A stretch of DNA of 64,000 bases from positions 1-64,000 of the IMG/VR virus record IMGVR_UViG_3300030616_000016. One strand, given 5' to 3'. The stretch comes from a virus. Shown here piece by piece: positions 797 through 64,000 of the stretch. Each line of letters opens with the position of its first letter. The first letter of the stretch is position 1. A model generated the notes under the pieces. That model was not told the origin of the DNA. It did no database searches and saw nothing but the letters and a program-made list of their open reading frames with translations. The position numbers and the translations under genes were made by a program.

Positions 797-1807
797 ATGA
801 TTATTGTAAGCGGATGTCCTAGAAGTGGAACAAGTCTTATGATGGACACCTTAAGAACCGCCCTCGGAGATGATCGAATACTTGGTGCTAAATTCCCACA
901 AGAACACACTCCCAAAAAAGGACCAAACGAATCCAGCTCCCGCTTTGCGGCTAGAAAATATGTTCTTGATAAACACAAAAAATCCAGGAACAAACAACAA
1001 GAAAAAACTAAGGACATGAATCCAAATGGCTTCTTTGAGTGTCGTTATTCAGTTGGCGGTGTATTGTGGCATCTTGGAATCGAAGATATATGCACTCCTG
1101 AGAAGGTTTGCAAGGTTGTTTCTCAAGGCTTGATACATACTGATCCTAAATGGGTTGATAAGATTATATATATGATACGTCATCCAAAAGCTGTAGCTAC
1201 GTCCCAAGAGCAACTAAAACGCTCCAATCTTCCATTGGATGATCTCGGTGTAGTCCATACTCCAAAGATGTTTGTTGATACAACATATAAAGCAGCGGTT
1301 TGGCTTAAAAAATACTCTAATATTCCTATTATTATTATTGATTTTGATGATCTTATCTCTGATCCAGACAATGTCTTATCAAACGTTCAAGAATTTGTTG
1401 GAGAAGGAGATTTCTCAAGTCATCCTGTCGATAAAACCCTGAGACGCAGTAAATACAAGGATATTCCTTCTCTTCTATGGGATATGGCAGAATCTATGTA
1501 TGAAGCCATGTCAAAGCAAGACTACGACTCTGTTATTAAGACGTTTGAGTCTAACAACGGCAGTATTATAAGAGATTCTGGTCGCCATGCGTGCGCTAGG
1601 CTAGGGCGTAGAGTGTCTTATAGAGAATGCCTTAACTGTTATAATAACAAAAAAGTAGCTGCCAATTTTAGATTAAATGCTGAGAAAAGAGGAATTGTTT
1701 GGAGAGAAGAGCCATGCTTGTTTGAGTGTGGTTTTTCTTGTGAAGAAGGCTTTGATCACAAAACAATTGAAGAAAGTATATCAGAGAATCACTGGGAGGA
1801 TTTTTAA
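797..1807 (+). CDS. P-loop sulfotransferase-like protein
   Basis: 336 residues starting at an ATG shortly after the preceding stop, with a GGAG ribosome site. The N-terminus reads IIVSGCPRSGTSLMMDTL, the 5'-phosphosulfate-binding P-loop of the sulfotransferase superfamily (G-x-P-R-S-G-T-S). A second matching region is MIRHPKAVATSQ near residue 130, like the 3'-phosphate-binding R-x-P...S motif. The C-terminal third is cysteine-rich (several Cys between residues 265 and 315), which is unusual for the family and may bind metal. It lies among tail-type genes, so it may sulfate a virion or host glycan; the substrate is unknown. Two other sulfotransferase-like genes lie at 11338 and 38913. Confidence 0.75.
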   Translation: MIIVSGCPRSGTSLMMDTLRTALGDDRILGAKFPQEHTPKKGPNESSSRFAARKYVLDKHKKSRNKQQEKTKDMNPNGFFECRYSVGGVLWHLGIEDICTPEKVCKVVSQGLIHTDPKWVDKIIYMIRHPKAVATSQEQLKRSNLPLDDLGVVHTPKMFVDTTYKAAVWLKKYSNIPIIIIDFDDLISDPDNVLSNVQEFVGEGDFSSHPVDKTLRRSKYKDIPSLLWDMAESMYEAMSKQDYDSVIKTFESNNGSIIRDSGRHACARLGRRVSYRECLNCYNNKKVAANFRLNAEKRGIVWREEPCLFECGFSCEEGFDHKTIEESISENHWEDF

Positions 1808-1811
1808 TTGC

Positions 1812-2120
1812 ATGGGATTATTCAAAACTGTAAATGTTGCTAAGTTCGATATTCCTGTTAATAGCAATATTAATAACATAAATGACTTTTTTGCTTCGCG
1901 CAATATTACCGCTGGAAGGATTTTGAAGGTTAAGACCGTCCCTCGTGATGATAAAATGCAAAGCATATATGTTTTCTATATAAACGGCAAACTTGATAAT
2001 CTGCCTATACCTCCCGGCCTTGAAGGAGAACCTGGAGTTGATGGACAACAAGGCCCTGTTGGAGACACGGGAGTCAATGCATATACTGTAGAAGCTGTAT
2101 GTGTTTATTTCTATAGATAA
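1812..2120 (+). CDS. small protein with a short collagen-like Gly-X-Y tract
   Basis: About 102 residues beginning MGLFKTVN at 1812, chosen because a GGGAGG site overlaps the end of the upstream gene and the longer frame only re-reads that gene. Residues ~68-86 contain consecutive Gly-X-Y triplets (GLEGEPGVDGQQGPVGDTG). Such tracts trimerise and are common in phage tail-fibre proteins. The rest is unrecognised. A promoter begins 4 bp after the stop, so this gene probably ends the upstream transcription unit. Role in the virion is inferred from position. Confidence 0.7.
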   Translation: MGLFKTVNVAKFDIPVNSNINNINDFFASRNITAGRILKVKTVPRDDKMQSIYVFYINGKLDNLPIPPGLEGEPGVDGQQGPVGDTGVNAYTVEAVCVYFYR

Positions 2121-2123
2121 TCA

Positions 2124-2151
2124 TTGAAAATAACTCATAAGGCGTTATAAT
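2124..2151 (+). promoter_or_regulatory. sigma70-like promoter for the fibre gene
   Basis: TTGAAA (2124-2129), 16-bp spacer, TATAAT (2146-2151), upstream of the gene starting at 2207. Between it and the start codon an AT-rich inverted repeat (TTATAATTA / TAATTATAA arms) could fold in the leader. Confidence 0.65.
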
Positions 2152-2206
2152 TATTATAGTAACATGAATTATTTTATTCACTAGTAATTATAATGAGGTC
2201 AGATAA

Positions 2207-3769
2207 ATGGCAATAATCAATCCAGTACCAGACACTCCGCTAGGCCCAGATCACCTCAAGGTCCATGATGTTATTAGATCAGATGACGCTGCTCCAAATC
2301 AGTCACTTTGGGTAGATGCATCTGGTAGAATCAATACTCAGGCTAATGGTATTTATATAGGTGAAAGCTATATCGCACGTGATTCTGTTTCTAATGAATT
2401 GAATATTGCCAATATTGACGCTTCTAATGAAATAAATTATGGCGATGAAGATTATGATGTTAATATCGATGCTTCTAATGAAATAAATATGCACGCGGAT
2501 GTTGATATGAATGGCAATTCATTGACAAATGCCGCCGGTTTAATTTCTCAATGGACCAATGATTCTTCTTATGAGCTTCAATCCAATAAAGGATCCGCGC
2601 TTGGCTATGCTTCATTGGATGGCGGTGGTAAAGTTCTTGTGTCAGAACTTCCTTCTGCTGTTATGATATACAAGGGCACATGGGATGCTTCAACTAATAC
2701 TCCGACGCTCGCAGATGGTTCAGGGGACGCTGGAGATGTTTATAGAGTATCAGTAGCGGGAACTCAGGATCTTGGCTCAGGAAGCATAACATTTGGCGTA
2801 GGAGACTATTGTATTTATAATGGTTCAACCTGGGAGAAATCTGATACGACTGATGCTGTCGCTTCTGTCAACGGATATACAGGGGTGGTTGCTCTTGCTC
2901 ATTCAGACATCAATACAATCCTTGGTGATGGTGAGTATCATTTGGACTCAGCCACGGAATCAGCCTTGACGGATGCTAATGCTCAATTATCAGCACTACA
3001 TACGGATGGGACGCCGACTTTTACATCTGTAACTACCGACACAGTTCGGGCGATTGATGGTGACGGACTTCAATTATTTGATGATGGGGGGAATGGAATA
3101 TTTGTTAAAGATGGTGGAAATGTTGGTTTCAACACAACTGATATTGAAAGCGCTGGCTCAACATATAAAGCTATTGAGGCGTATGCTTCAACGCTGGTTT
3201 TTGGTGCGTCAACTGCTGGACTTGGCCTTGCTTCAAATGCTTACAATGATGGAGCTTGGAAAAGAAAAATAGCAGATGAGGCCGCAATGATTTATATGTC
3301 TACAAGTGGAGGTATATATTTGCGAACCGCTGGTTCTGATTCCGCTGATTCTACTATCAGTTGGACTGAGGCAATTAGGGTTCATAATAGTGGTAATGTT
3401 TCAGTTGGTACAGCAGACTTTCCAACCCCAGCCAGTTATAAATTTTTTGTCAAAGCATCAGATACTGGATTGGCTGATGCTGATTTTTATGCTTCAGCAG
3501 TTGCTGCGTTTGAATGTAATGGGGCTTGTTATTTAAATTTTGTAACACCTAATGATCAACCAGGCGGTATAGCAATGCAGGATGAAGATGGGCATACAGC
3601 TACTCTTGATTATGATCATAACACAAATAGTTTTAGAATGTCTGGCGTAGGATGGACTGATACATTACATATTACTAATGCTGTTGATACAGGTGGAACT
3701 GATTCTGGATATATAACATTATCTGTTGGTGGTACAACTAGGTATATTAGACTTAATAGTACGAGTTAG
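2207..3769 (+). CDS. tail-fibre-like structural protein
   Basis: 520 residues, ATG start with GAGGTC upstream and its own promoter at 2124. The N-terminal ~100 residues contain a small repeat, DASNEIN, occurring three times. The middle (about residues 150-230) resembles phage fibre modules with WDASTNTPTLADG and YTGVVAL phrases typical of repeat-rich tail fibres. The C-terminal half is Gly/Ser/Asp-rich and predicted all-beta. No C-terminal chaperone-like peptidase domain is recognised. Likely a tail or head fibre; the receptor is unknown. Confidence 0.65.
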   Translation: MAIINPVPDTPLGPDHLKVHDVIRSDDAAPNQSLWVDASGRINTQANGIYIGESYIARDSVSNELNIANIDASNEINYGDEDYDVNIDASNEINMHADVDMNGNSLTNAAGLISQWTNDSSYELQSNKGSALGYASLDGGGKVLVSELPSAVMIYKGTWDASTNTPTLADGSGDAGDVYRVSVAGTQDLGSGSITFGVGDYCIYNGSTWEKSDTTDAVASVNGYTGVVALAHSDINTILGDGEYHLDSATESALTDANAQLSALHTDGTPTFTSVTTDTVRAIDGDGLQLFDDGGNGIFVKDGGNVGFNTTDIESAGSTYKAIEAYASTLVFGASTAGLGLASNAYNDGAWKRKIADEAAMIYMSTSGGIYLRTAGSDSADSTISWTEAIRVHNSGNVSVGTADFPTPASYKFFVKASDTGLADADFYASAVAAFECNGACYLNFVTPNDQPGGIAMQDEDGHTATLDYDHNTNSFRMSGVGWTDTLHITNAVDTGGTDSGYITLSVGGTTRYIRLNSTS

Positions 3770-4010: not shown

Positions 4011-4422
4011 AGAAATAGTTTCTACTGTTGAAGGAATCGAGATATCACTTAAAGCAGATTGGACTCCTAAACAAGCTAATTGCTTATCAAAAATAAAGCG
4101 TGCTCTTGTTGGAGAATATGAAGACTATATGGAATCTGTTAAAGCTTACGATAATGCTAGAATTAAGCTTGTAAAAGAATTTGCTGAGAAAGATAAAGAC
4201 GGCAATCCTGTTTTTACAGATGATAATTCTAGTTATAAAATAGTAGACACAGCTGGTTTTAGAAACAAATATGAAGAGAAAATAAAGCCACTTGTTGATG
4301 AACTTGAAGAAATATCGAATAAGGAAATTGATATAAAGTTTGATAAATTTAATATTGATGATTTCCCTAAAAACTGTCCCGCTGAAGCTGTTTATAAAAT
4401 GTATGCTTTGATAGAAGACTAG
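4000..4422 (+). CDS. hypothetical phage protein, helical
   Basis: 140 residues, ATG start with AAGGAG upstream. Rich in Lys and Glu with a predicted coiled-coil-like stretch around residues 30-110 (EYEDYMESVKAYDNARIKLV...). No cysteine cluster, no signal peptide and no recognised domain. It sits between fibre-type genes on the same strand, so a structural or assembly role is plausible but not shown. Confidence 0.65.
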   Translation: MKVKEIVSTVEGIEISLKADWTPKQANCLSKIKRALVGEYEDYMESVKAYDNARIKLVKEFAEKDKDGNPVFTDDNSSYKIVDTAGFRNKYEEKIKPLVDELEEISNKEIDIKFDKFNIDDFPKNCPAEAVYKMYALIED

Positions 4423-4442
4423 ATTAGATGGAGTAACGAAGT

Positions 4443-6401
4443 GTGGCGAAGAGTTATTGGAATGATCCTTATGCGAGTTGGAATGACCCATGTTATACAT
4501 GGCAGGGAGATAATTTTTGCTCGTCTTCCAGTAGTGCTTCATCTGATTCTAGTTCATCAGTGTCAAGCTCAAGTTCTGTTTCTAGCTCAAGTGTATCGAG
4601 TAGTTCAAGGTCATCTGATTCAAGTTCTAGTATCAGCTCTTCGAGCAGATCTTCATCAAGTATAAGTTCAGATAGTTCATCATCTATTTCAAGTTCTAGT
4701 AGCTCAATATCAAGTCTATCGTCGTCTAGCATTAGCTCTGATTCTAGCAGTAGTATTTCAAGCGACAGTTCTTCTTCTGTATCATCTGATTCATCTTCCA
4801 GTAATTCATCATCGTCTTATGCATCTTATTTAAAATACTATGAAGACTGGACTAATCTTGATGACTGGACGACTACAGACGGAACTCCAACTGTAGGTTC
4901 TGCTCTTAGCTCACCTCCGTTTTCTGGTAATGTGTTAAAACTGGATGATGGAGATCCTGATTGTGGAGTATCGCAAGATTTCTCTCCAGTGTTAGGTATT
5001 AATCCTCATATAACTTGGTATTTTTACGCACATAATAGCGACGATCTTGAAATCCAGCTTTATGATAATAATAATGATTTAATTGTAAAAGCGGGGTTTT
5101 TAAGTGTTCAGAATGTATTATACACTGAAAATGGAGCTCAACAAACAGAGTTAGGTGGATGGAGCACAAAGACATGGTACAAGTTAGAGCTAAAGGATTG
5201 GGATTGGCAAAATGAGACTGTTGGATTTTATCTAAACGGTGTTAAGAAGTGGGACGCAAATATCTATGCCGGAACAAAGAGTATCAGATATATTAAGTTT
5301 TTATCTGGCGGTACTTTTGGTACTCAGGTTGGTCCTTTAAATATAAACGAAACTCAGCCTTCAAGCAAGTCTTCGAAGAGCAGTAGGTCAGGATCATCAA
5401 AAAGTTCCAAGAGTAGTAAATCTAGTTTAAGTTCTAGCTCTTCTGACAGTAGTGCATCGTCAGACAGCAGCCGCAGTAGCAGTTCTATCAGTTCAGATTC
5501 ATCGAGTTCCATTAGCAGCAGTTCAATTTCTAGCGATTCGTCGTCTAGTACTTCCTCTTCAAGTATAAGCTCTGATAGCTCAAGTAGTGTTAGTTCTGAT
5601 AGTTCTTCTAGTGTTAGTTCTACATCTAGTGATAGCTCATCTTCTGTCTCAAGCGATAGCAGCTCGTCTATATCTTCTTCAAGTATATCTTCTTCAAGTA
5701 CTTCCTCTTCGAGTGTGTCTTCTTCAAGTACTTCCTCTGATAGTAGTTCTTCATTAAGCTCAGACAGCTCTAGTTCAGTCAGCTCTGACAGTAGTTCATC
5801 GATAAGCAGTAGCTTGTCTTCTTCAAGTTCTGTTAGTTCTTCTAGTATATCTTCATCCAGTAGTGTATCTGATAGCAGCGTATCTTCTAGTAGCTCGAAG
5901 AGCAGCTCTTCAGTAAGTAGCAGCTCTACTAGCTCCTCTTCAGTAAGTAGTTTGTCTTCGACGAGTAGCTCATCTATTAGCTCTGAATCCAGTTCTTCAA
6001 GATCTTCATATAGCTCTAGTAGTATTTCTTCCGATAGCTCAGATAGTTCTAGTAGTACATCAAGCTCTTCTTCTTTATCTAGATCTTCTTTTAGTTCCAG
6101 TTCTGTATCGTCTTATAGCAGTCAATCAAGCTTAAGCAGTTTCTCTAGTTCTAGCGCTCAAAAAACACTACAGGCTGTTTGTTGTGTGAGACTTGAAGAT
6201 CCTATTGTTACCAAAGATGGCTATACTGTTGATGATTGGGCGCCAGGTAATTACTATTATATTGGTCCTTGGACTATATATGTAAGCAAATCCCAGTGTG
6301 ATCCGAATGCTCCATTTGATACTCCTTGCTGTCCTCCATGTGCATCTTGTTTTTCATCAAGCAGTTCTAGCACTAGTTCTTCTAGTAGCTCTGGCGCATG
6401 A
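4443..6401 (+). CDS. large serine-rich surface protein with a central beta-sandwich-like domain
   Basis: 652 residues with a GTG start behind a GGAG site. Order: short Trp/Tyr-rich head (1-25), Ser-rich arm 1 (~26-122), a globular domain (~125-305) resembling concanavalin/laminin-G type binding domains (repeated Trp, a DDLEIQLYDNNND strand pattern, a WYKLELKDWDW stretch), Ser-rich arm 2 (~307-572), a Cys-rich knob (~575-640, with CDPNAPFDTPCCPPCASC) and a short Ser tail. Serine is encoded by a mixture of TCN and AGY codons, so the arms are protein-level low complexity and not simple DNA repeats. It probably projects from the virion; the arms may be glycosylated or phosphorylated, which is inference. 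Confidence 0.7.
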   Translation: MAKSYWNDPYASWNDPCYTWQGDNFCSSSSSASSDSSSSVSSSSSVSSSSVSSSSRSSDSSSSISSSSRSSSSISSDSSSSISSSSSSISSLSSSSISSDSSSSISSDSSSSVSSDSSSSNSSSSYASYLKYYEDWTNLDDWTTTDGTPTVGSALSSPPFSGNVLKLDDGDPDCGVSQDFSPVLGINPHITWYFYAHNSDDLEIQLYDNNNDLIVKAGFLSVQNVLYTENGAQQTELGGWSTKTWYKLELKDWDWQNETVGFYLNGVKKWDANIYAGTKSIRYIKFLSGGTFGTQVGPLNINETQPSSKSSKSSRSGSSKSSKSSKSSLSSSSSDSSASSDSSRSSSSISSDSSSSISSSSISSDSSSSTSSSSISSDSSSSVSSDSSSSVSSTSSDSSSSVSSDSSSSISSSSISSSSTSSSSVSSSSTSSDSSSSLSSDSSSSVSSDSSSSISSSLSSSSSVSSSSISSSSSVSDSSVSSSSSKSSSSVSSSSTSSSSVSSLSSTSSSSISSESSSSRSSYSSSSISSDSSDSSSSTSSSSSLSRSSFSSSSVSSYSSQSSLSSFSSSSAQKTLQAVCCVRLEDPIVTKDGYTVDDWAPGNYYYIGPWTIYVSKSQCDPNAPFDTPCCPPCASCFSSSSSSTSSSSSSGA

Positions 6402-6417
6402 CATCATACATTACCTA

Positions 6418-6445
6418 TTGACATTTAATCATTAATGTGTATAAT
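6418..6445 (+). promoter_or_regulatory. consensus sigma70 promoter
   Basis: TTGACA (6418-6423), 16-bp spacer, TATAAT (6440-6445), upstream of the small membrane-protein gene at 6489. Perfect consensus in both hexamers. Confidence 0.85.
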
Positions 6446-6488
6446 TATACCCTTTTAGTTTCTGCAACTTATTTAATGGAGGTTAAAT

Positions 6489-6680
6489 ATGCAGAGTATT
6501 AAGAATTGGTTTAAGAATGTTATTGGTGAAGCAGTTAGCAGTAAGAAAACTCTTGCAACAGCAGGCGTTGTTGGAACACTTGGGCTTACCAATCCTAAGT
6601 ATGTTCTTATTGCTTTCGGTATCTGGTGTGTATGTCAGGCAGCAGTTGATGTTGCTAAGGTAATGAAGGGTAGTAAATAG
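6489..6680 (+). CDS. small membrane protein, holin-like
   Basis: 63 residues with a strong GGAGG site. The N-terminal ~20 residues are amphipathic and positively charged, followed by two hydrophobic stretches (about 22-35 and 40-55) and a basic C-terminus. It has its own consensus promoter and a terminator immediately after, so it is a monocistronic unit expected to be strongly expressed. Size and topology fit a small holin or another membrane-active phage protein, but nothing proves lysis function. Confidence 0.6.
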   Translation: MQSIKNWFKNVIGEAVSSKKTLATAGVVGTLGLTNPKYVLIAFGIWCVCQAAVDVAKVMKGSK

Positions 6681-8380: not shown

Positions 8381-10546
8381 CTACTCCAATGGGTCTTTGA
8401 CCTTGCCTTGGTTTACTAGTTTGCAGTATTCGGTATTGCATTCGAGTGCCATTCGATTACCCCTAAATCCATGAGCAAAACACTTCTCTCTTGGATTAAA
8501 TGTTGGGTCTTGTGCGCGTAATAGTACTTGCTCAAATTCTTCTATGTCGCTAGTAATTTTAGCAATTCTTAAATGTTCTGCTGTAGGAGTGCTTACTGTT
8601 GAGCATGGATAGAAGTAGCCGTCCGCTCCAAGAGTTATCTGGAAGTAGCCATATACACAATGATCAAAGTCAAATCTTTCTATATCTGTAAACCATGGAT
8701 AATTCCAGAATATATATGGTTTCTCATCTTTGCTTTCTGAAACAAGTGGCGCCAGCCACGCTTCATATTGTTTATCTCCCGGCACTTCAACCATTTCTTT
8801 ATACTTCTTTACATCGTCAAATGATTGATTGTACATAGCGAATGGTATAGAAAACCTTACAGAGTCTACTCCAATGTCTTTTGCTATATTCACAAGCGTG
8901 GAGAACTTCTCAGGGCTTGCTGTGTGCTCTGATATTAGGTATCCTAGCCTTATAGCATGTCCTTTGCCTGCTTTCTCTCTGATGTCCACAGCGCGCTTAA
9001 GAGCGTCTATAACCTCCCAGAACCTTTCTGTGTGTCTATGTCGCTTAACCTTTCCCCATCCCCATGGAGTAGCTGCGTCTAATGAAACCTGAAGATATGA
9101 TATAGTATCACCGTCGGCTAGTCTGTTGAGTTCAGTAAGAAAGCCGGTTTCTTGGTCTAGGCGTTTGAGAGCATATCCGTTGGTATGTATACCAAAGTGA
9201 TTTCCATATTCTCTCGTTTTAGCCATGAATGTCATAAAGTATGGATTCATAAGAGGTTCTGTATATGCACCTCCATATATATGCTGTGGAATTCGTCCTG
9301 CTATATTATCCAGAAGATGAAGACCCGTTATTTCCCAATCACCAAGTGCCTTTATGAACTTTTCGCCCGCACAATTTTTTGATACAAAACCGTTGGCTAC
9401 ATAGTTACCAGTTCCAGTTTCTATGCTATATACATCTTGCATACTTCCCTGCTCAATAGCAATAATTTTTGCATTTCCATGTATGGTACCGTCAAAAATT
9501 GCCTTTCTTTTCCTGGTTATTGATGGATTAGTTATACTAAAAAATTTGATGATGTCAGATGTTTTTGAAACTCGTATTTGAGTTTGTGCTTTGTTAACGC
9601 CCTCTCTTGTGGAAATTCCATATCTAACTTCTATAATATCTAATGCTTTTTTGATACGGTCTATTATATTATTATCTGTATTAGATATGGCAATTGTAGT
9701 TGTGGAATATGATCCTTCTGCATCGAAAATGCCACTTAGGAATCCTATCATAAAATCATATGATTTTTTGTGTGATTCCATAATGTTTTGTATTTCATCA
9801 ACTTGTGATTGAATATTTACCTGTATATAATGCAATTCTTTATTTGTACCTTGCATCTTTCCGCTACAAAATTTTAGATGTGGCATATATGATTTAAATC
9901 TTTGTATTGCTTCATAGTCTGTAAGGGCTAGTCTAAAGTTTCTGCATTTTTCATCATATGCTTTGCCGTACCTCTTCCTTTTATACATATGATTTCTCAG
10001 GCACCCATCGCCATTTGCGATACCACATATCCACCCTTCCTTAAAATCTTTACTTTCTGTACATGTTTTGCTTGGATATGATATCCATCTGATGTTTCTT
10101 GAGTGTCTTTTAGTTGCCTCTGTATATCTTTGATCTATTCTTAGCCATTTATGGTCTGGTGTGCATTCTGTAACACCTTTATTTGTTATAAGTTTGATTG
10201 TTTCTGCTTGCCTAATGCCAATCCATTTGACTTTTGTTTTGGTATTTTTCCAGTGAGTTCCGGATATGCCTTTCTTGAATCCGATCAGCTCGTCTCCTAC
10301 CCGTAAATCCTGTATCGGCTTATATTTTAGTTCGCTTGTTAAAACCATTGTATCTGCAGCATGACAATATTCACAAGACAATTGACAAGGCTTGATATGA
10401 TCTGCCGGCAGGTGTATTTCAAACTGTTTTGGATATACTGGTTTGCCATTGAAGAACTGAGACGGATCATCTTTCATATGGTTCATCAACTGATCCCAGT
10501 ATAAGTATTCCTTTATCCTTGGGTCTTCTCTTTCATTCTCAATCAT
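8381..10546 (-). CDS. radical SAM enzyme interrupted by a LAGLIDADG intein
   Basis: 721 residues as encoded. Residues 1-60 and 392-721 form the host protein; 61-391 are an intein. After splicing the [4Fe-4S]-binding motif CQLSCEYC is restored: the third Cys is supplied by the residue following the intein. C-terminal cysteines (CVYGYF, FYPCST, EKCFAHGF, ECNTEYC) resemble SPASM/twitch-type auxiliary cluster sites. The enzyme therefore cannot be active before splicing. Its 4-bp overlap with the glycosyltransferase gene upstream and its position in the glycan operon suggest a role in sugar or peptide modification; substrate unknown. Confidence 0.85.
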   Translation of the reverse strand: MIENEREDPRIKEYLYWDQLMNHMKDDPSQFFNGKPVYPKQFEIHLPADHIKPCQLSCEYCHAADTMVLTSELKYKPIQDLRVGDELIGFKKGISGTHWKNTKTKVKWIGIRQAETIKLITNKGVTECTPDHKWLRIDQRYTEATKRHSRNIRWISYPSKTCTESKDFKEGWICGIANGDGCLRNHMYKRKRYGKAYDEKCRNFRLALTDYEAIQRFKSYMPHLKFCSGKMQGTNKELHYIQVNIQSQVDEIQNIMESHKKSYDFMIGFLSGIFDAEGSYSTTTIAISNTDNNIIDRIKKALDIIEVRYGISTREGVNKAQTQIRVSKTSDIIKFFSITNPSITRKRKAIFDGTIHGNAKIIAIEQGSMQDVYSIETGTGNYVANGFVSKNCAGEKFIKALGDWEITGLHLLDNIAGRIPQHIYGGAYTEPLMNPYFMTFMAKTREYGNHFGIHTNGYALKRLDQETGFLTELNRLADGDTISYLQVSLDAATPWGWGKVKRHRHTERFWEVIDALKRAVDIREKAGKGHAIRLGYLISEHTASPEKFSTLVNIAKDIGVDSVRFSIPFAMYNQSFDDVKKYKEMVEVPGDKQYEAWLAPLVSESKDEKPYIFWNYPWFTDIERFDFDHCVYGYFQITLGADGYFYPCSTVSTPTAEHLRIAKITSDIEEFEQVLLRAQDPTFNPREKCFAHGFRGNRMALECNTEYCKLVNQGKVKDPLE
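9374..10366 (-). mobile_element. intein with LAGLIDADG homing endonuclease in the radical SAM gene
   Basis: Residues 61-391 of the precursor. It starts with Cys and block-A pattern CHAADTMVLTS followed by LRVGDELIGF, and ends FVSKN before a +1 Cys. Endonuclease motifs are GWICGIANGDG and GFLSGIFDAEGS (two LAGLIDADG helices). The insertion point is immediately before the third Cys of the radical SAM CxxxCxxC motif, a highly conserved site, as expected for intein homing. Confidence 0.9.
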
Positions 10547-43592: not shown

Positions 43593-45647
43593 ATGAAAGC
43601 ATTAGGATTTGATTGTGGAACGTACAACTTAGTAATGGCGTCTCCTGGCAAGGAAGAGGGAAAGCCAAGTATCAAGCGTGAGATTAATGTATTCCTTAAG
43701 ATTGAGAACCCACAAAAGTTTACTTTAGGTATGTTACGCAAACAAGGTGTTCCAATGATGGAAGAAGATGGCTCAGTATATATTCTTGGACAAGCTGCAA
43801 TTGACCTTGCAGTAGATCTAGGTACTACATATCGCAGACCTATGAAAGCAGGGTGCTTGTCTCCTGAAGAGAAAGATGCATTTAAGATCCTTGGTTATAT
43901 GCTCAAAGGAATGGTTGGAAGTCTTAAGGAAGAGACTGTATTGTTCTATAGTGTACCTGCAGAACCTATTGATGCACAAGGCGATACAAAATACCATGAG
44001 AAGGTTATTGGATCCATTCTTGGAACAATTGATAACCTAACGGCTAAACCTCTAAATGAAGCTTCAGCAATCATTTATGCATGTACTAATAATCAAACAG
44101 GCATTGGCATTTCATGTGTTACACCTGATACTTCTATCATAACAGATAAAGGTATTATAGAAATAGCAAAATTACATGAAGGTGATAGAGTTTTAACAAG
44201 ACTTGGTACTTATGAACAAGTATCTAAAGTAACAGTAAGTGAAAGGGATGAAGAGATACAAGAGATAAATTTTTTCTGTTCTAATCGAAACCTTAGAATA
44301 ACGTCGGAACACAAAATTTATACAAAAAGTAATGGCATTGAACAATGGAAGCGTTCTGATCAAGTAACTAATGAAGATTATGTTATGATGCCCAGTGTAT
44401 CTTATAAAGATAAAACGTGTTATATAGCTATAGACAAACGTGTTACATGCTCTAAAGACACAAAACGAGAATTCTATGAAGTACATGAAAATGTAGCAAA
44501 GTTCATAGGCCTTTTTCTAGGAGATGGACATATAGAACTATCTAAAGGTGGAATATTCTTTGATTTTGGTAAGCATGAAACAAATTTGCACCAATTTGTA
44601 ATGGATATAGCAAAAGAAAAATTTGGTAATTCTATGTCTTTTATCGAAAAGGGAGAAGAATGTATAAGATGTCAAATGAATAATAAGGCACTTGCAAGGT
44701 GGTTAAAAGAAAATTGTTACGATAGTAGTGGTAAAAAGAAATTGCCTTGGTTAGTAGACGAGTTAAATAGACCGGCAAGAATCGGTTTGTTGTCAGGATT
44801 ATTAGAGAGCGATGGGCATATTGGAGATAATGAAGTATCATTTGAGAATACTAGCTCAGCTCTTACTATGTTAGTTCAACAATTATGTTTATCTGAGGGA
44901 TATACTGGTAGTTATTGGTTCAGAGATTCTAGGTCTGGTGGAACAATAGAAAATAGAACAATAACAGGAAACGATAGCTGCTGTTTCACATTGCATGAGC
45001 AATATATACAATCGCTCAAGTTTCTGATTAGTGGCAATAGACATAGGACAACATCTTTCCAAGATAGTAAACAATGGAACAAAGTGCGCAGTAATCAAAA
45101 AGTTAAATATACAGGCAAAGTGTATGATTTAACAGTTGAAAATGAACATTCTTTTTGCGTACCAGGATGCTGTATACACAATTGTGGTGCTGGTATGATT
45201 AACGTAGCTTTTGTAAAGATGGGTGTCAATATATTTGAGTTTAGTCTTACAAGCTCTGGTGATTGGATTGATAGGGAAAGTGCTAGGGTTACAGGAGAAT
45301 CAGAAGCTTTTATTAATCAGGCTAAACATAATATTGACTTGTCTAAAGAACCACAAAATATGACTGAGATGGCTATTTCTAAGAATTATGAGATACTTAT
45401 TGAGCGTAGCATTCTTAAGATCAAAGATGGCATTATCAATTCTAAAGGCAAGGCTAAGACACAGAATCCTATACCTATTGTTATAGCAGGTGGTACTAGT
45501 TCTGTGAATGGTTTTATGGCAGTGTTTAAGAAAACACTAGAAAGGATTGAAATGCCTATTCCTATATCAGAATGCATACAGCCTCTGAAGCCATTACATT
45601 CAGTAGCTAAAGGATGTCTTGTTGCTGCAGAGCTTGAAGCTGGATAG
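43593..45647 (+). CDS. actin-like (ParM/MreB-fold) ATPase containing an intein
   Basis: 684 residues as encoded. Residues 1-174 and 531-684 are the host protein. Phosphate-1 motif FDCGTYNLV (6-14), phosphate-2 region GIGIS|CGAGMINVAF split by the intein, and adenosine motif VIAGGTSSVNGF near the C-terminus. The spliced protein is ~328 residues, as expected for bacterial and phage actins. Phage actin-like proteins segregate DNA or position the genome in the cell. GGAGG site upstream. Confidence 0.85.
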   Translation: MKALGFDCGTYNLVMASPGKEEGKPSIKREINVFLKIENPQKFTLGMLRKQGVPMMEEDGSVYILGQAAIDLAVDLGTTYRRPMKAGCLSPEEKDAFKILGYMLKGMVGSLKEETVLFYSVPAEPIDAQGDTKYHEKVIGSILGTIDNLTAKPLNEASAIIYACTNNQTGIGISCVTPDTSIITDKGIIEIAKLHEGDRVLTRLGTYEQVSKVTVSERDEEIQEINFFCSNRNLRITSEHKIYTKSNGIEQWKRSDQVTNEDYVMMPSVSYKDKTCYIAIDKRVTCSKDTKREFYEVHENVAKFIGLFLGDGHIELSKGGIFFDFGKHETNLHQFVMDIAKEKFGNSMSFIEKGEECIRCQMNNKALARWLKENCYDSSGKKKLPWLVDELNRPARIGLLSGLLESDGHIGDNEVSFENTSSALTMLVQQLCLSEGYTGSYWFRDSRSGGTIENRTITGNDSCCFTLHEQYIQSLKFLISGNRHRTTSFQDSKQWNKVRSNQKVKYTGKVYDLTVENEHSFCVPGCCIHNCGAGMINVAFVKMGVNIFEFSLTSSGDWIDRESARVTGESEAFINQAKHNIDLSKEPQNMTEMAISKNYEILIERSILKIKDGIINSKGKAKTQNPIPIVIAGGTSSVNGFMAVFKKTLERIEMPIPISECIQPLKPLHSVAKGCLVAAELEAG
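44115..45182 (+). mobile_element. intein with LAGLIDADG endonuclease in the actin-like gene
   Basis: Residues 175-530. Starts CVTPDTSIITDKG...HEGDRVLTR, ends CCIHN before a +1 Cys. LAGLIDADG helices FIGLFLGDGHIEL and IGLLSGLLESDGHIG. Inserted inside the phosphate-2 loop, an ATP-contacting site. Confidence 0.9.
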
Positions 45648-62326: not shown

Positions 62327-63502
62327 TTATAATTTACCGGTCATAAATTTTATTGCTTTGCCAAATGAATCAACCTTATTAAGTTCAATTACATTGGCTA
62401 CTTGGAACTCATTCCTGCCTTGTTTAGTTTTATTAGTACGTATACGTCCTCTAACAAGACATGTCTTGTTTGCTTCGCCAAGTTCTTCAAGTGTTTTCTT
62501 CAAAGATTTCTCTGCTTTTTTATATGAAACAACTGGAGCTATGCTATGTCCATCTTCCATATAAAGAATACGCCTCTTTGATTCTTCAACTATGAATAAC
62601 TGGCAGGCAACGGTTACGAACATCCAATGTTGCAATCTGCTATCTTCGCCCATAGCTACTCTAGATGCATCAGATAAAGTTTTAATATCACAATCCTTTA
62701 TCCTCTCAAGTCTTTCTTTGTTGTCATCTAGAAATGGTGCGCTTTCAGATAGACTGAAACCAAGATGATAAAGCTCTTCTTTATGATACACATTTTTATC
62801 CATAGGTTCACAGTCTAACATTTCTATATTAAATACTTCGTTCTTCTTTTCTTCGTCATTCAGAGTCTTGCGTTTCATTATCTTGTTAGACTCTTTTTTT
62901 ATGTTCTCAATATTAATGACAATCCAATTTCTATTTGGCTTACCATCTTCTGTAGTTTCAGCTATTGGATCAAAGAATCCAATCTTTGCCAAAGCATATA
63001 AGGCTGATGTATATATGGTTTTATAATTATTAATATAAGCCCATATAAACTCTGTTAGACTGTCGAATGGTCCATACTTTTTAACCAGTTCTTCAATAGC
63101 TGAGGCAGCATTGCTATTCACATAGCGTATACCATCCATGCCTACTCTTATGCCGTACCCATTCTCTAATGGCTGGCATATTTGTGAGCATCCTTCTATA
63201 CTTGGCGGTCTAACTTCAAGCCCAGCAGATGTCGCTTCTTCAATATATTTACTGACAGTAGATTTGTTGTTGGACCTGGCATTAATCATTGCGCTTATGT
63301 ATTCTTCAAGATATAAGCATTTTAGGTATGCAGTCTTATAGGTAAGATAGGCATAGCTTACACTATGTGAGTTTTTTGATATAAGACCACTAGATAAGAT
63401 ATAATTATGGGGCTCGTTTTCCATTCTAATATTATATAGTCTACGCTTACCTAGTTTTCTTATCTTATTTATCTTTACTTTCTTCAATTGCAAGTTTTGC
63501 AC
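62327..63502 (-). CDS. dnaE: DNA polymerase III alpha C-terminal part with intein C-terminal fragment
   Basis: 391 residues from a GTG at 63502. Residues 1-44 (QLKKVKINKIRKLGKRRLYNIR...NYILSSGLISKN) align well with the C-fragments of DnaE split inteins and end N before a +1 Ser. From Ser45 the polymerase continues: SHSVSYAYLTYKTAYLKCLYLEEYISAMIN (DnaE 'F-N-K-S-H-x-x-x-Y' region), then helix-hairpin-helix and C-terminal domains. An AGGAGA sequence lies ~10 nt before the GTG. The rest of the polymerase lies beyond the right edge. Confidence 0.8.
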   Translation of the reverse strand: MQNLQLKKVKINKIRKLGKRRLYNIRMENEPHNYILSSGLISKNSHSVSYAYLTYKTAYLKCLYLEEYISAMINARSNNKSTVSKYIEEATSAGLEVRPPSIEGCSQICQPLENGYGIRVGMDGIRYVNSNAASAIEELVKKYGPFDSLTEFIWAYINNYKTIYTSALYALAKIGFFDPIAETTEDGKPNRNWIVINIENIKKESNKIMKRKTLNDEEKKNEVFNIEMLDCEPMDKNVYHKEELYHLGFSLSESAPFLDDNKERLERIKDCDIKTLSDASRVAMGEDSRLQHWMFVTVACQLFIVEESKRRILYMEDGHSIAPVVSYKKAEKSLKKTLEELGEANKTCLVRGRIRTNKTKQGRNEFQVANVIELNKVDSFGKAIKFMTGKL

Positions 63503-64000
63503 GATTGAATTTTCTCCTCATACAAAATTCAGCATTATTATACATGAGTCTTAGCACTTTTGTTAAATCCCTTTCTATATACCACTCTATATAATATAAA
63601 ATACCTCTTTGCTGTGAGGGTATTTTATAATCTATATCTAGTATATGGAATAGCATATATGATATTTGTGATACAACAGATTTCGTTCCTAGAAATCTTA
63701 TGCACCATTTTTTATTAACGCTATTTCTATATAGAGTTCCATCACCATCAAAAAATCCTCTTAGCATATGTCCAAATAAATCTATTTTTATAGGAGGTAA
63801 TACTGCATCATTTGTTTTATCACTTGTAAAACCAAATCTGTAAAGATCTTCAACCATTTTTGGAGATGCTACTGTAATTCTGGACATTGGTTTTACATTG
63901 ACTTCTCTGCCTGCTATTATCTTTTTACCTCCAGGTATTTCTATTATCTTGTTATCAGTTTTCCATTGTTTTTTAACATAGTTGATTATATATCTGTCGC
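63465..64000 (-). mobile_element. LAGLIDADG part of the dnaE intein (5' end outside window)
   Basis: Frame is open from the right edge (…VKKQWKTDNKII…) and ends KLAIEESKDK at 63465. Contains GHMLRGFFDGDGTLY, a LAGLIDADG helix, and RFLGTKSVVSQISYML. It overlaps the C-terminal frame (62327-63502) by 38 bp in a different reading frame, so intein and polymerase are not one continuous ORF. Confidence 0.8.

What the first reader, a model, noticed from the sequence alone, without database searches (positions are those of the whole stretch)
62327..64000. dnaE intein is broken in frame at the point where natural split inteins break
The endonuclease frame ends at 63465 while the frame holding the ~36-residue intein C-fragment and the polymerase starts at a GTG (63502) behind AGGAGA. 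The C-fragment (VKINKIRKLGKRRLYNIR...GLISKN) is close to the known C-fragments of cyanobacterial DnaE split inteins. So this is either a frameshift mutation or a new split intein in which overlapping genes make two polypeptides joined in trans.
Basis: partly seen in the sequence, partly recalled or inferred. Interest (0 to 1): 0.72.

Follow-up and report, generated by a model that had tools for sequence, protein, structure and literature searches.

The report
Phage polymerase gene fractured by split intein
In this phage the gene for its DNA-copying enzyme is cut into two genes with a selfish DNA-cutting gene sitting between them, and each half ends in half of a self-splicing protein segment that should weld the two enzyme pieces back together; relatives in other phages show that this layout is real and not a sequencing error.

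Summary
The window ends inside the element. In the full 231,647-bp phage record three minus-strand genes follow each other: dnaE-N ending in an intein N-half (64368-67049); a complete free-standing HTH-LAGLIDADG homing endonuclease (63465-64322); and an intein C-half plus dnaE-C (62327-63502), whose GTG start overlaps the endonuclease by 38 nt. The endonuclease is therefore not the N-part of one broken intein; the true N-half lies upstream. This is the 'fractured gene' arrangement (split intein with a free-standing endonuclease in the gap). Frameshift is rejected: the same layout recurs at the same dnaE site in eight other virus loci, and two residues away in two more, with LAGLIDADG and Vsr-like endonucleases swapping. 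The joined exteins align gap-free with an uninterrupted phage DnaE. A perfect sigma-70 promoter precedes the endonuclease. The intein resembles cyanobacterial DnaE split inteins and splits at the same point, but sits 4 residues downstream and belongs to a separate phage clade. Trans-splicing is inferred, not shown. New member of a known kind. In passing: other phage contigs carry split DnaE inteins at the cyanobacterial site itself.

The parts
62327..63370 (-). dnaE-C: C-extein of DNA polymerase III alpha, starting at Ser+1 (SHSVSYAY...)
   Evidence: NCBIfam DnaE models match residues 44/45 to about 376 of the ORF; the site aligns with the uninterrupted Moorella phage DnaE
63371..63502 (-). 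Intein C-half (IntC, 44 aa from GTG): block F RLYNIRMENEPHNY 63401-63442; block G SSGLISKN 63371-63394; terminal Asn, penultimate Lys
63513..63518 (-). Shine-Dalgarno AGGAGA for the IntC/dnaE-C gene
   Evidence: sequence
63537..63566 (-). Promoter-like site TTAACA-18-TATAAT (11/12) inside the endonuclease gene, upstream of IntC
   Evidence: a consensus match only, weaker than the endonuclease promoter
63465..63502 (-). 38-nt overlap between the end of the endonuclease ORF and the start of the IntC ORF (different frames)
   Evidence: equivalent overlaps at relatives
63465..64000 (-). Free-standing homing endonuclease gene (285 aa), window part; the full gene is 63465-64322 in record coordinates (G000). 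N-terminal HTH-like region (64152-64283), LAGLIDADG motif 1 at 64044-64076, motif 2 (LRGFFDGDG) at 63738-63764
   Evidence: PHROG 4645 E=2e-41, Pfam LAGLIDADG_3, positions, C-terminus collinear with relatives
64000..64000 (-). Beyond the window (G000 coordinates): HEG promoter TTGACA-17-TATAAT with TG, 64362-64390; IntN stop 64368; IntN (99 aa, Cys1 at 64667) 64371-64667; dnaE-N ORF 64368-67049 (893 aa)

Best explanation
This is a fractured dnaE gene. A split intein interrupts the phage's replicative DNA polymerase III alpha gene between GFNA and SHS, and a complete HTH-LAGLIDADG homing-endonuclease gene with its own promoter and ribosome-binding site sits between the two intein halves. Three proteins are made: DnaE-N fused to IntN (acidic, net -8), the endonuclease, and IntC (basic, net +7) fused to DnaE-C. 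The intein halves are inferred to bind through the opposite charges, fold into a HINT domain, and join DnaE-N to DnaE-C in trans by standard class-1 chemistry (Cys1, block-B His, terminal Asn, Ser+1). The endonuclease is inferred to cut intein-free dnaE alleles at the same spot during mixed infection and so spread the whole cassette. Shown: gene structure, homology, catalytic residues, recurrence, promoter match. Inferred: trans-splicing, homing, cleavage target.
For: Three ORFs with separate starts and stops. Pooled halves match the Npu DnaE split intein at E=9.5e-14 and Ssp at 1e-9, with the same split point. Joined exteins align with no gap across the junction to the uninterrupted Moorella phage DnaE (FNA|SHS against FNV|SHS; 32% identity over about 1000 aa, 6e-148). 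Pfam and NCBIfam recognise both polymerase halves. The endonuclease belongs to phrog_4645, as do the endonucleases of L109, L114, L118 and LC76P1, and its ends are collinear with free-standing relatives. The same IntN-stop / endonuclease / IntC-start layout occurs at the same site in L041, L042, L112, L115, L116, L118, L119, L120 and two residues downstream in L109, L114. A perfect 12/12 sigma-70 promoter with ideal spacer and TG lies at the IntN/HEG junction, one of only five in the genome on both strands against 0.3 per strand expected. Intein plus HEG are 29-31% G+C against 35-38% in dnaE and 38% genome-wide. No PolA or PolB found in the record, so this dnaE is the only replicative polymerase detected. 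In fractured relatives IntN and IntC are under purifying selection (dN/dS mostly 0.14-0.23; one pair 0.37).
Against: No expression or splicing data. The block-F Asp is Asn and the penultimate residue is Lys, both unusual, although the Asn is shared by five relatives (L112, L109, L114, L047, L055) and Lys/Arg by four of them, and an intact intein of the same phage also ends SKN. Block B reads SLEH rather than T..H. No close (>50%) relative of this exact locus was found, so selection on these particular halves could not be measured. The synonymous distances used for the relatives are near saturation.
Confidence: 0.9

Rival explanations
1. Genes in pieces without splicing: the intein halves are dead and the two DnaE pieces work as a non-covalent complex, as described for the Aeh1 phage NrdA broken by a homing endonuclease.
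For: Unusual block-F Asn and penultimate Lys. Genes in pieces that retain function are documented (Friedrich 2007, cited in PMC10448857). Some relatives also show dnaE breaks with no intein halves recognised (L047 ORFs 986-3625 and 4216-6660).
Against: Both halves keep Cys1, block-B His, terminal Asn and Ser+1, and are complementary at the canonical split point. The same Asn and K/R occur in continuous mini-inteins (L047, L055), where splicing in cis would be needed to give an intact polymerase. Halves in relatives are under purifying selection.
Confidence: 0.07
2. Frameshift or assembly error, or a decayed continuous intein: the endonuclease domain and the C-fragment were one frame and a single indel separated them.
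For: The IntC frame is shifted relative to the endonuclease frame, and the endonuclease ATG happens to be in the same frame as IntN (sequence). Continuous dnaE inteins with an in-frame LAGLIDADG domain exist (L036).
Against: Two TGA stops lie within five codons after IntN, and TGA is a normal stop in this genome (30 of 110 ORFs of 200 aa or more). The endonuclease has its own Shine-Dalgarno, start, promoter and a natural C-terminus. The same layout recurs at ten other loci with different endonucleases.
Confidence: 0.02
3. A self-splicing intron holding an endonuclease gene splits dnaE and RNA splicing restores one message.
For: Relatives of the endonuclease are annotated as intron-encoded in staphylococcal phages, and in Lysinibacillus phage LC76P1 a relative lies between two dnaE pieces with no intein halves.
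Against: No Rfam intron in the locus. The sequences next to the exons are translated intein halves ending in frame at GFNA and SHS.
Confidence: 0.01

Closest known systems
Fractured genes with split inteins and a free-standing homing endonuclease (Dassa et al. 2009, NAR 37:2560; gp41-1, NrdJ-1, IMPDH-1 types; full text not held, described from memory)
   Same: Conserved DNA-replication gene broken by a split intein, free-standing endonuclease gene in the gap, mainly phage, own control elements
   Different: Here the gene is dnaE, and the endonuclease is HTH-LAGLIDADG rather than Vsr-like; relatives at the same site do carry Vsr-like ones. Whether dnaE or LAGLIDADG cases are among the published 26 loci could not be checked
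Cyanobacterial DnaE split inteins (Npu, Ssp)
   Same: Host gene dnaE, same split point, about 33% (Npu) and 29% (Ssp) identity over the splicing domain, acidic IntN and basic IntC
   Different: Inserted 4 residues upstream (Y|CFN) with Cys+1, no endonuclease, different clade (UFBoot 97 for cyanobacterial-site inteins)
MIJ3 phage split PolB intein (PMC6892783)
   Same: Phage polymerase genes flank an endonuclease gene with split intein halves
   Different: PolB instead of DnaE; HNH endonuclease; different insertion
Weaselvirus (Rhodococcus phage Weasels2, Peregrin) dnaE intein
   Same: Same insertion site (FNK|C.../HN|SHS), Ser+1
   Different: Continuous mini-intein without endonuclease, only 17-19% identical over the splicing domain

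Membership tests
Natural split intein | IntN and IntC encoded by separate ORFs attached to the two halves of one host protein | tested here: met
Natural split intein | Splicing residues: Cys/Ser1, block-B His, C-terminal Asn, Cys/Ser/Thr+1 | tested here: met
   C1, SLEH, N, S+1; penultimate Lys and block-F Asn are atypical but shared with most of the clade
Natural split intein | Protein trans-splicing activity | not testable with these tools
   needs expression or mass spectrometry
Fractured gene (Dassa 2009) | Free-standing homing-endonuclease gene between the two intein halves | tested here: met
   63465-64322, own ATG, Shine-Dalgarno, promoter; phrog_4645
Fractured gene (Dassa 2009) | Vsr-like endonuclease (about half of the published loci, from memory; not obligatory) | tested here: not met
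   LAGLIDADG_3 instead; Vsr-like/REase-type at the same site in L112, L116, L120
LAGLIDADG homing endonuclease | Two LAGLIDADG motifs with acidic residues | tested here: met
   GLLLADGW and GFFDGDG, aligned with relatives
LAGLIDADG homing endonuclease | Site-specific cleavage of the intein-free allele | not testable with these tools
   biochemistry needed
Cyanobacterial DnaE split intein allele | Insertion before CFNKSHS with Cys+1 | tested here: not met
   inserted before SHS, 4 residues downstream, Ser+1
Cyanobacterial DnaE split intein allele | Groups with Npu/Ssp DnaE inteins in a tree | tested here: not met
   groups with L112, L109, L114, L047, L055 (UFBoot 97); Npu/Ssp group with phage L034/L038 (97)

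The most novel reading that the evidence does not exclude
Phage dnaE is a breeding ground for split inteins: endonuclease genes repeatedly invade dnaE inteins at the canonical point, split them, swap types and are lost, and phage lineages at the neighbouring Y|CFN site gave rise to the cyanobacterial split DnaE inteins used in biotechnology. The fractured locus here would be a sister case that still shows the endonuclease step.
Probability: 0.2. Interest if true: 0.75.

Novelty: new member of a known kind. Interest (0 to 1): 0.48.

Why it matters
It puts dnaE, the gene of the classic cyanobacterial split intein, among phage fractured genes, with about ten parallel loci at one spot in which the endonuclease type is exchanged. 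That makes the step from mobile intein to split intein directly comparable across relatives, and it offers a set of new natural split inteins (Ser+1, unusual block-F Asn and penultimate Lys/Arg) for testing as protein-ligation tools.

Tried and rejected
Single-protein scans of viral contigs with P0001 and P0002 found nothing, so alignments were needed. Rfam found no intron. RNA folding around both starts gave no unusual structure (z -1.1 and -0.2). A genome-contig scan with the IntN alignment found no relative. No tRNA in the rest of the record and only distant terminase relatives (Moorella phage MTATph1, 32%), so the host is unknown. Alternative code (TGA read as an amino acid) rejected: TGA is an ordinary stop here. 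Membership in the cyanobacterial DnaE intein clade considered and rejected by site and tree. Dassa 2009 full text is not held.

Full report
What is there. The window is bases 1-64000 of a 231,647-bp virus record. The flagged region is the 3' part of an element that runs past the window's end, so I fetched G000:61500-72000 as L002. On the minus strand there are three ORFs in a row. The first is dnaE-N, 893 aa, 67049-64368, with PHP, polymerase and finger domains. Its last 99 residues, from Cys795, are an intein N-half: CLSPSTKLR...SLEHKFMC...LDMLQVI. The second is a 285-aa endonuclease, 64322-63465, with an ATG behind GGAG. The third is a 391-aa ORF, 63502-62327, with a GTG behind AGGAGA; it starts with a 44-aa intein C-half ending GLISKN and continues as dnaE-C from SHSVSYAY. 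The first and second are separated by 45 nt containing a second in-frame TGA; the second and third overlap by 38 nt in different frames. TGA is an ordinary stop in this genome (30 of 110 ORFs of 200 aa or more).

Intein identity. The two halves pooled match the solved Npu DnaE split intein (2keq, E=9.5e-14) and the Ssp one (1zd7, 1e-9) with the same split point; gp41-1 is much weaker (0.0085). The insertion site differs: the cyanobacterial intein precedes CFNKSHS, this one precedes SHS, four residues later. Removing both halves gives a polymerase that aligns without a gap across the junction to the uninterrupted DnaE of Moorella phage MTATph1 (FNA|SHS against FNV|SHS). No PolA or PolB match occurs in the record, so this is the only replicative polymerase detected.

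Recurrence. Alignment-based scans of IMG/VR brought in other dnaE loci. Read by ORF, the same IntN-stop / free-standing endonuclease / IntC-start layout is present at the same site in L041, L042, L112, L115, L116, L118, L119 and L120 (L121 is a close copy), and two residues downstream in L109 and L114. The endonuclease is LAGLIDADG in L109, L114, L118, L119 and L115 (truncated) and REase/Vsr-like in L112, L116, L120 and, by inspection only, L041/L042. In most of these the IntC ORF starts inside the last 4-76 nt of the endonuclease ORF, as here. Continuous inteins at the site also exist: mini-inteins in L055, L031 and Weaselvirus, HNH in L029 and L032, LAGLIDADG in L036. A sequencing frameshift cannot produce this pattern.

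Relationships. In a tree of splicing domains the query groups with L112 and, at UFBoot 97, with L109, L114, L047 and L055; the next clade (97 for both together) holds L115, L116, L118, L119 and L120. Each of these two groups mixes LAGLIDADG and Vsr-like endonucleases, so the endonuclease has been exchanged independently of the intein. Npu and Ssp DnaE group (97) with phage contigs L034 and L038, whose split DnaE inteins lie at the cyanobacterial site. The query is therefore not an allele of the cyanobacterial intein. The Npu and Ssp sequences in the alignments were entered from memory; the Npu and Ssp matches are independent of that.

Endonuclease. It belongs to phrog_4645 (2e-41) and carries an N-terminal HTH-like region plus two LAGLIDADG motifs. 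A homologue lies between two dnaE pieces at a different site in Lysinibacillus phage LC76P1. Its C-terminus (RRKFNR...) is where homologues end, so it is not a truncated intein domain. The junction IntN/endonuclease holds TTGACA-17-TATAAT with an extended -10 TG, 12 of 12 matches, oriented towards the endonuclease; the whole genome has five such sites over both strands, and a Markov model expects 0.3 per strand. A weaker 11/12 site lies upstream of IntC. Intein and endonuclease are 29-31% G+C against 35-38% for the flanking dnaE, consistent with a mobile insert.

Function. Cys1, block-B His, terminal Asn and Ser+1 are present. Block-F Asn (for Asp) is shared by L112, L109, L114, L047 and L055; penultimate Lys/Arg by all of these except L112. 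The radical-SAM intein of the same phage also ends SKN. IntN is acidic (-8) and IntC basic (+7), the charge pattern of Npu and Ssp. In the related pairs L118/L119/L115 and L041/L042 the halves evolve under purifying selection where it could be measured (dN/dS 0.14-0.37; synonymous sites near saturation). I take trans-splicing as likely but unproven, and homing by the endonuclease as inference from family membership.

Novelty. Fractured genes were described in 2009 (Dassa et al.; not held, from memory; cited in PMC6892783 and PMC7090010), and phage MIJ3 has a comparable split PolB with an HNH endonuclease. Searches of the held library found no account of a fractured phage dnaE or of a LAGLIDADG endonuclease in a split intein, but most subscription papers are missing. 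I file it as a new member of a known kind.

Noticed in passing
window 8381-10546 (-), 43593-45647 (+); G000 155776-158877, 161320-164316, 177403-182841: Five further continuous inteins in the same phage: radical-SAM protein, actin/ParM-like protein, terminase large subunit, portal-like and a large structural-type protein. The phage is unusually intein-rich.
   Followed up: partly
L034, L035, L038 (IntC also in L037, L039, L040): Phage contigs with split DnaE inteins at the cyanobacterial site (N|CFN[KA][SA]HS). In L034, L035 and L038 the halves are about 2-3 kb apart with other, partly virion-like genes between; L034 and L038 group with Npu/Ssp DnaE (UFBoot 97). A lead on the origin of the cyanobacterial split intein.
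   Followed up: partly
L109 1629-4325: The dnaE of this phage is fractured a second time (IntN, endonuclease-like ORF with TnsA-like match, IntC before SAVGS), so the polymerase would need two trans-splicing events.
   Followed up: no
L055 2648-6654: dnaE fractured at a HAAG site with a REase-like ORF in the gap, together with a continuous mini-intein at the site of this finding.
   Followed up: no
L112 6269-7606: The free-standing endonuclease in the fractured dnaE is fused to a Mom-like DNA-modification domain (PF25680, 2e-26).
   Followed up: no
L027 2488-7034 (Lysinibacillus phage LC76P1): dnaE split near the polymerase active site by a relative of this endonuclease, with no intein halves and no Rfam intron; genes in pieces or an unrecognised intron.
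   Followed up: no
L115, L118, L119 just after the IntN stop: A conserved non-coding stretch (TTTACAGTGTAATTTATGTTAATTA or close to it) between IntN and the endonuclease, possibly a regulatory element carried with it.
   Followed up: no
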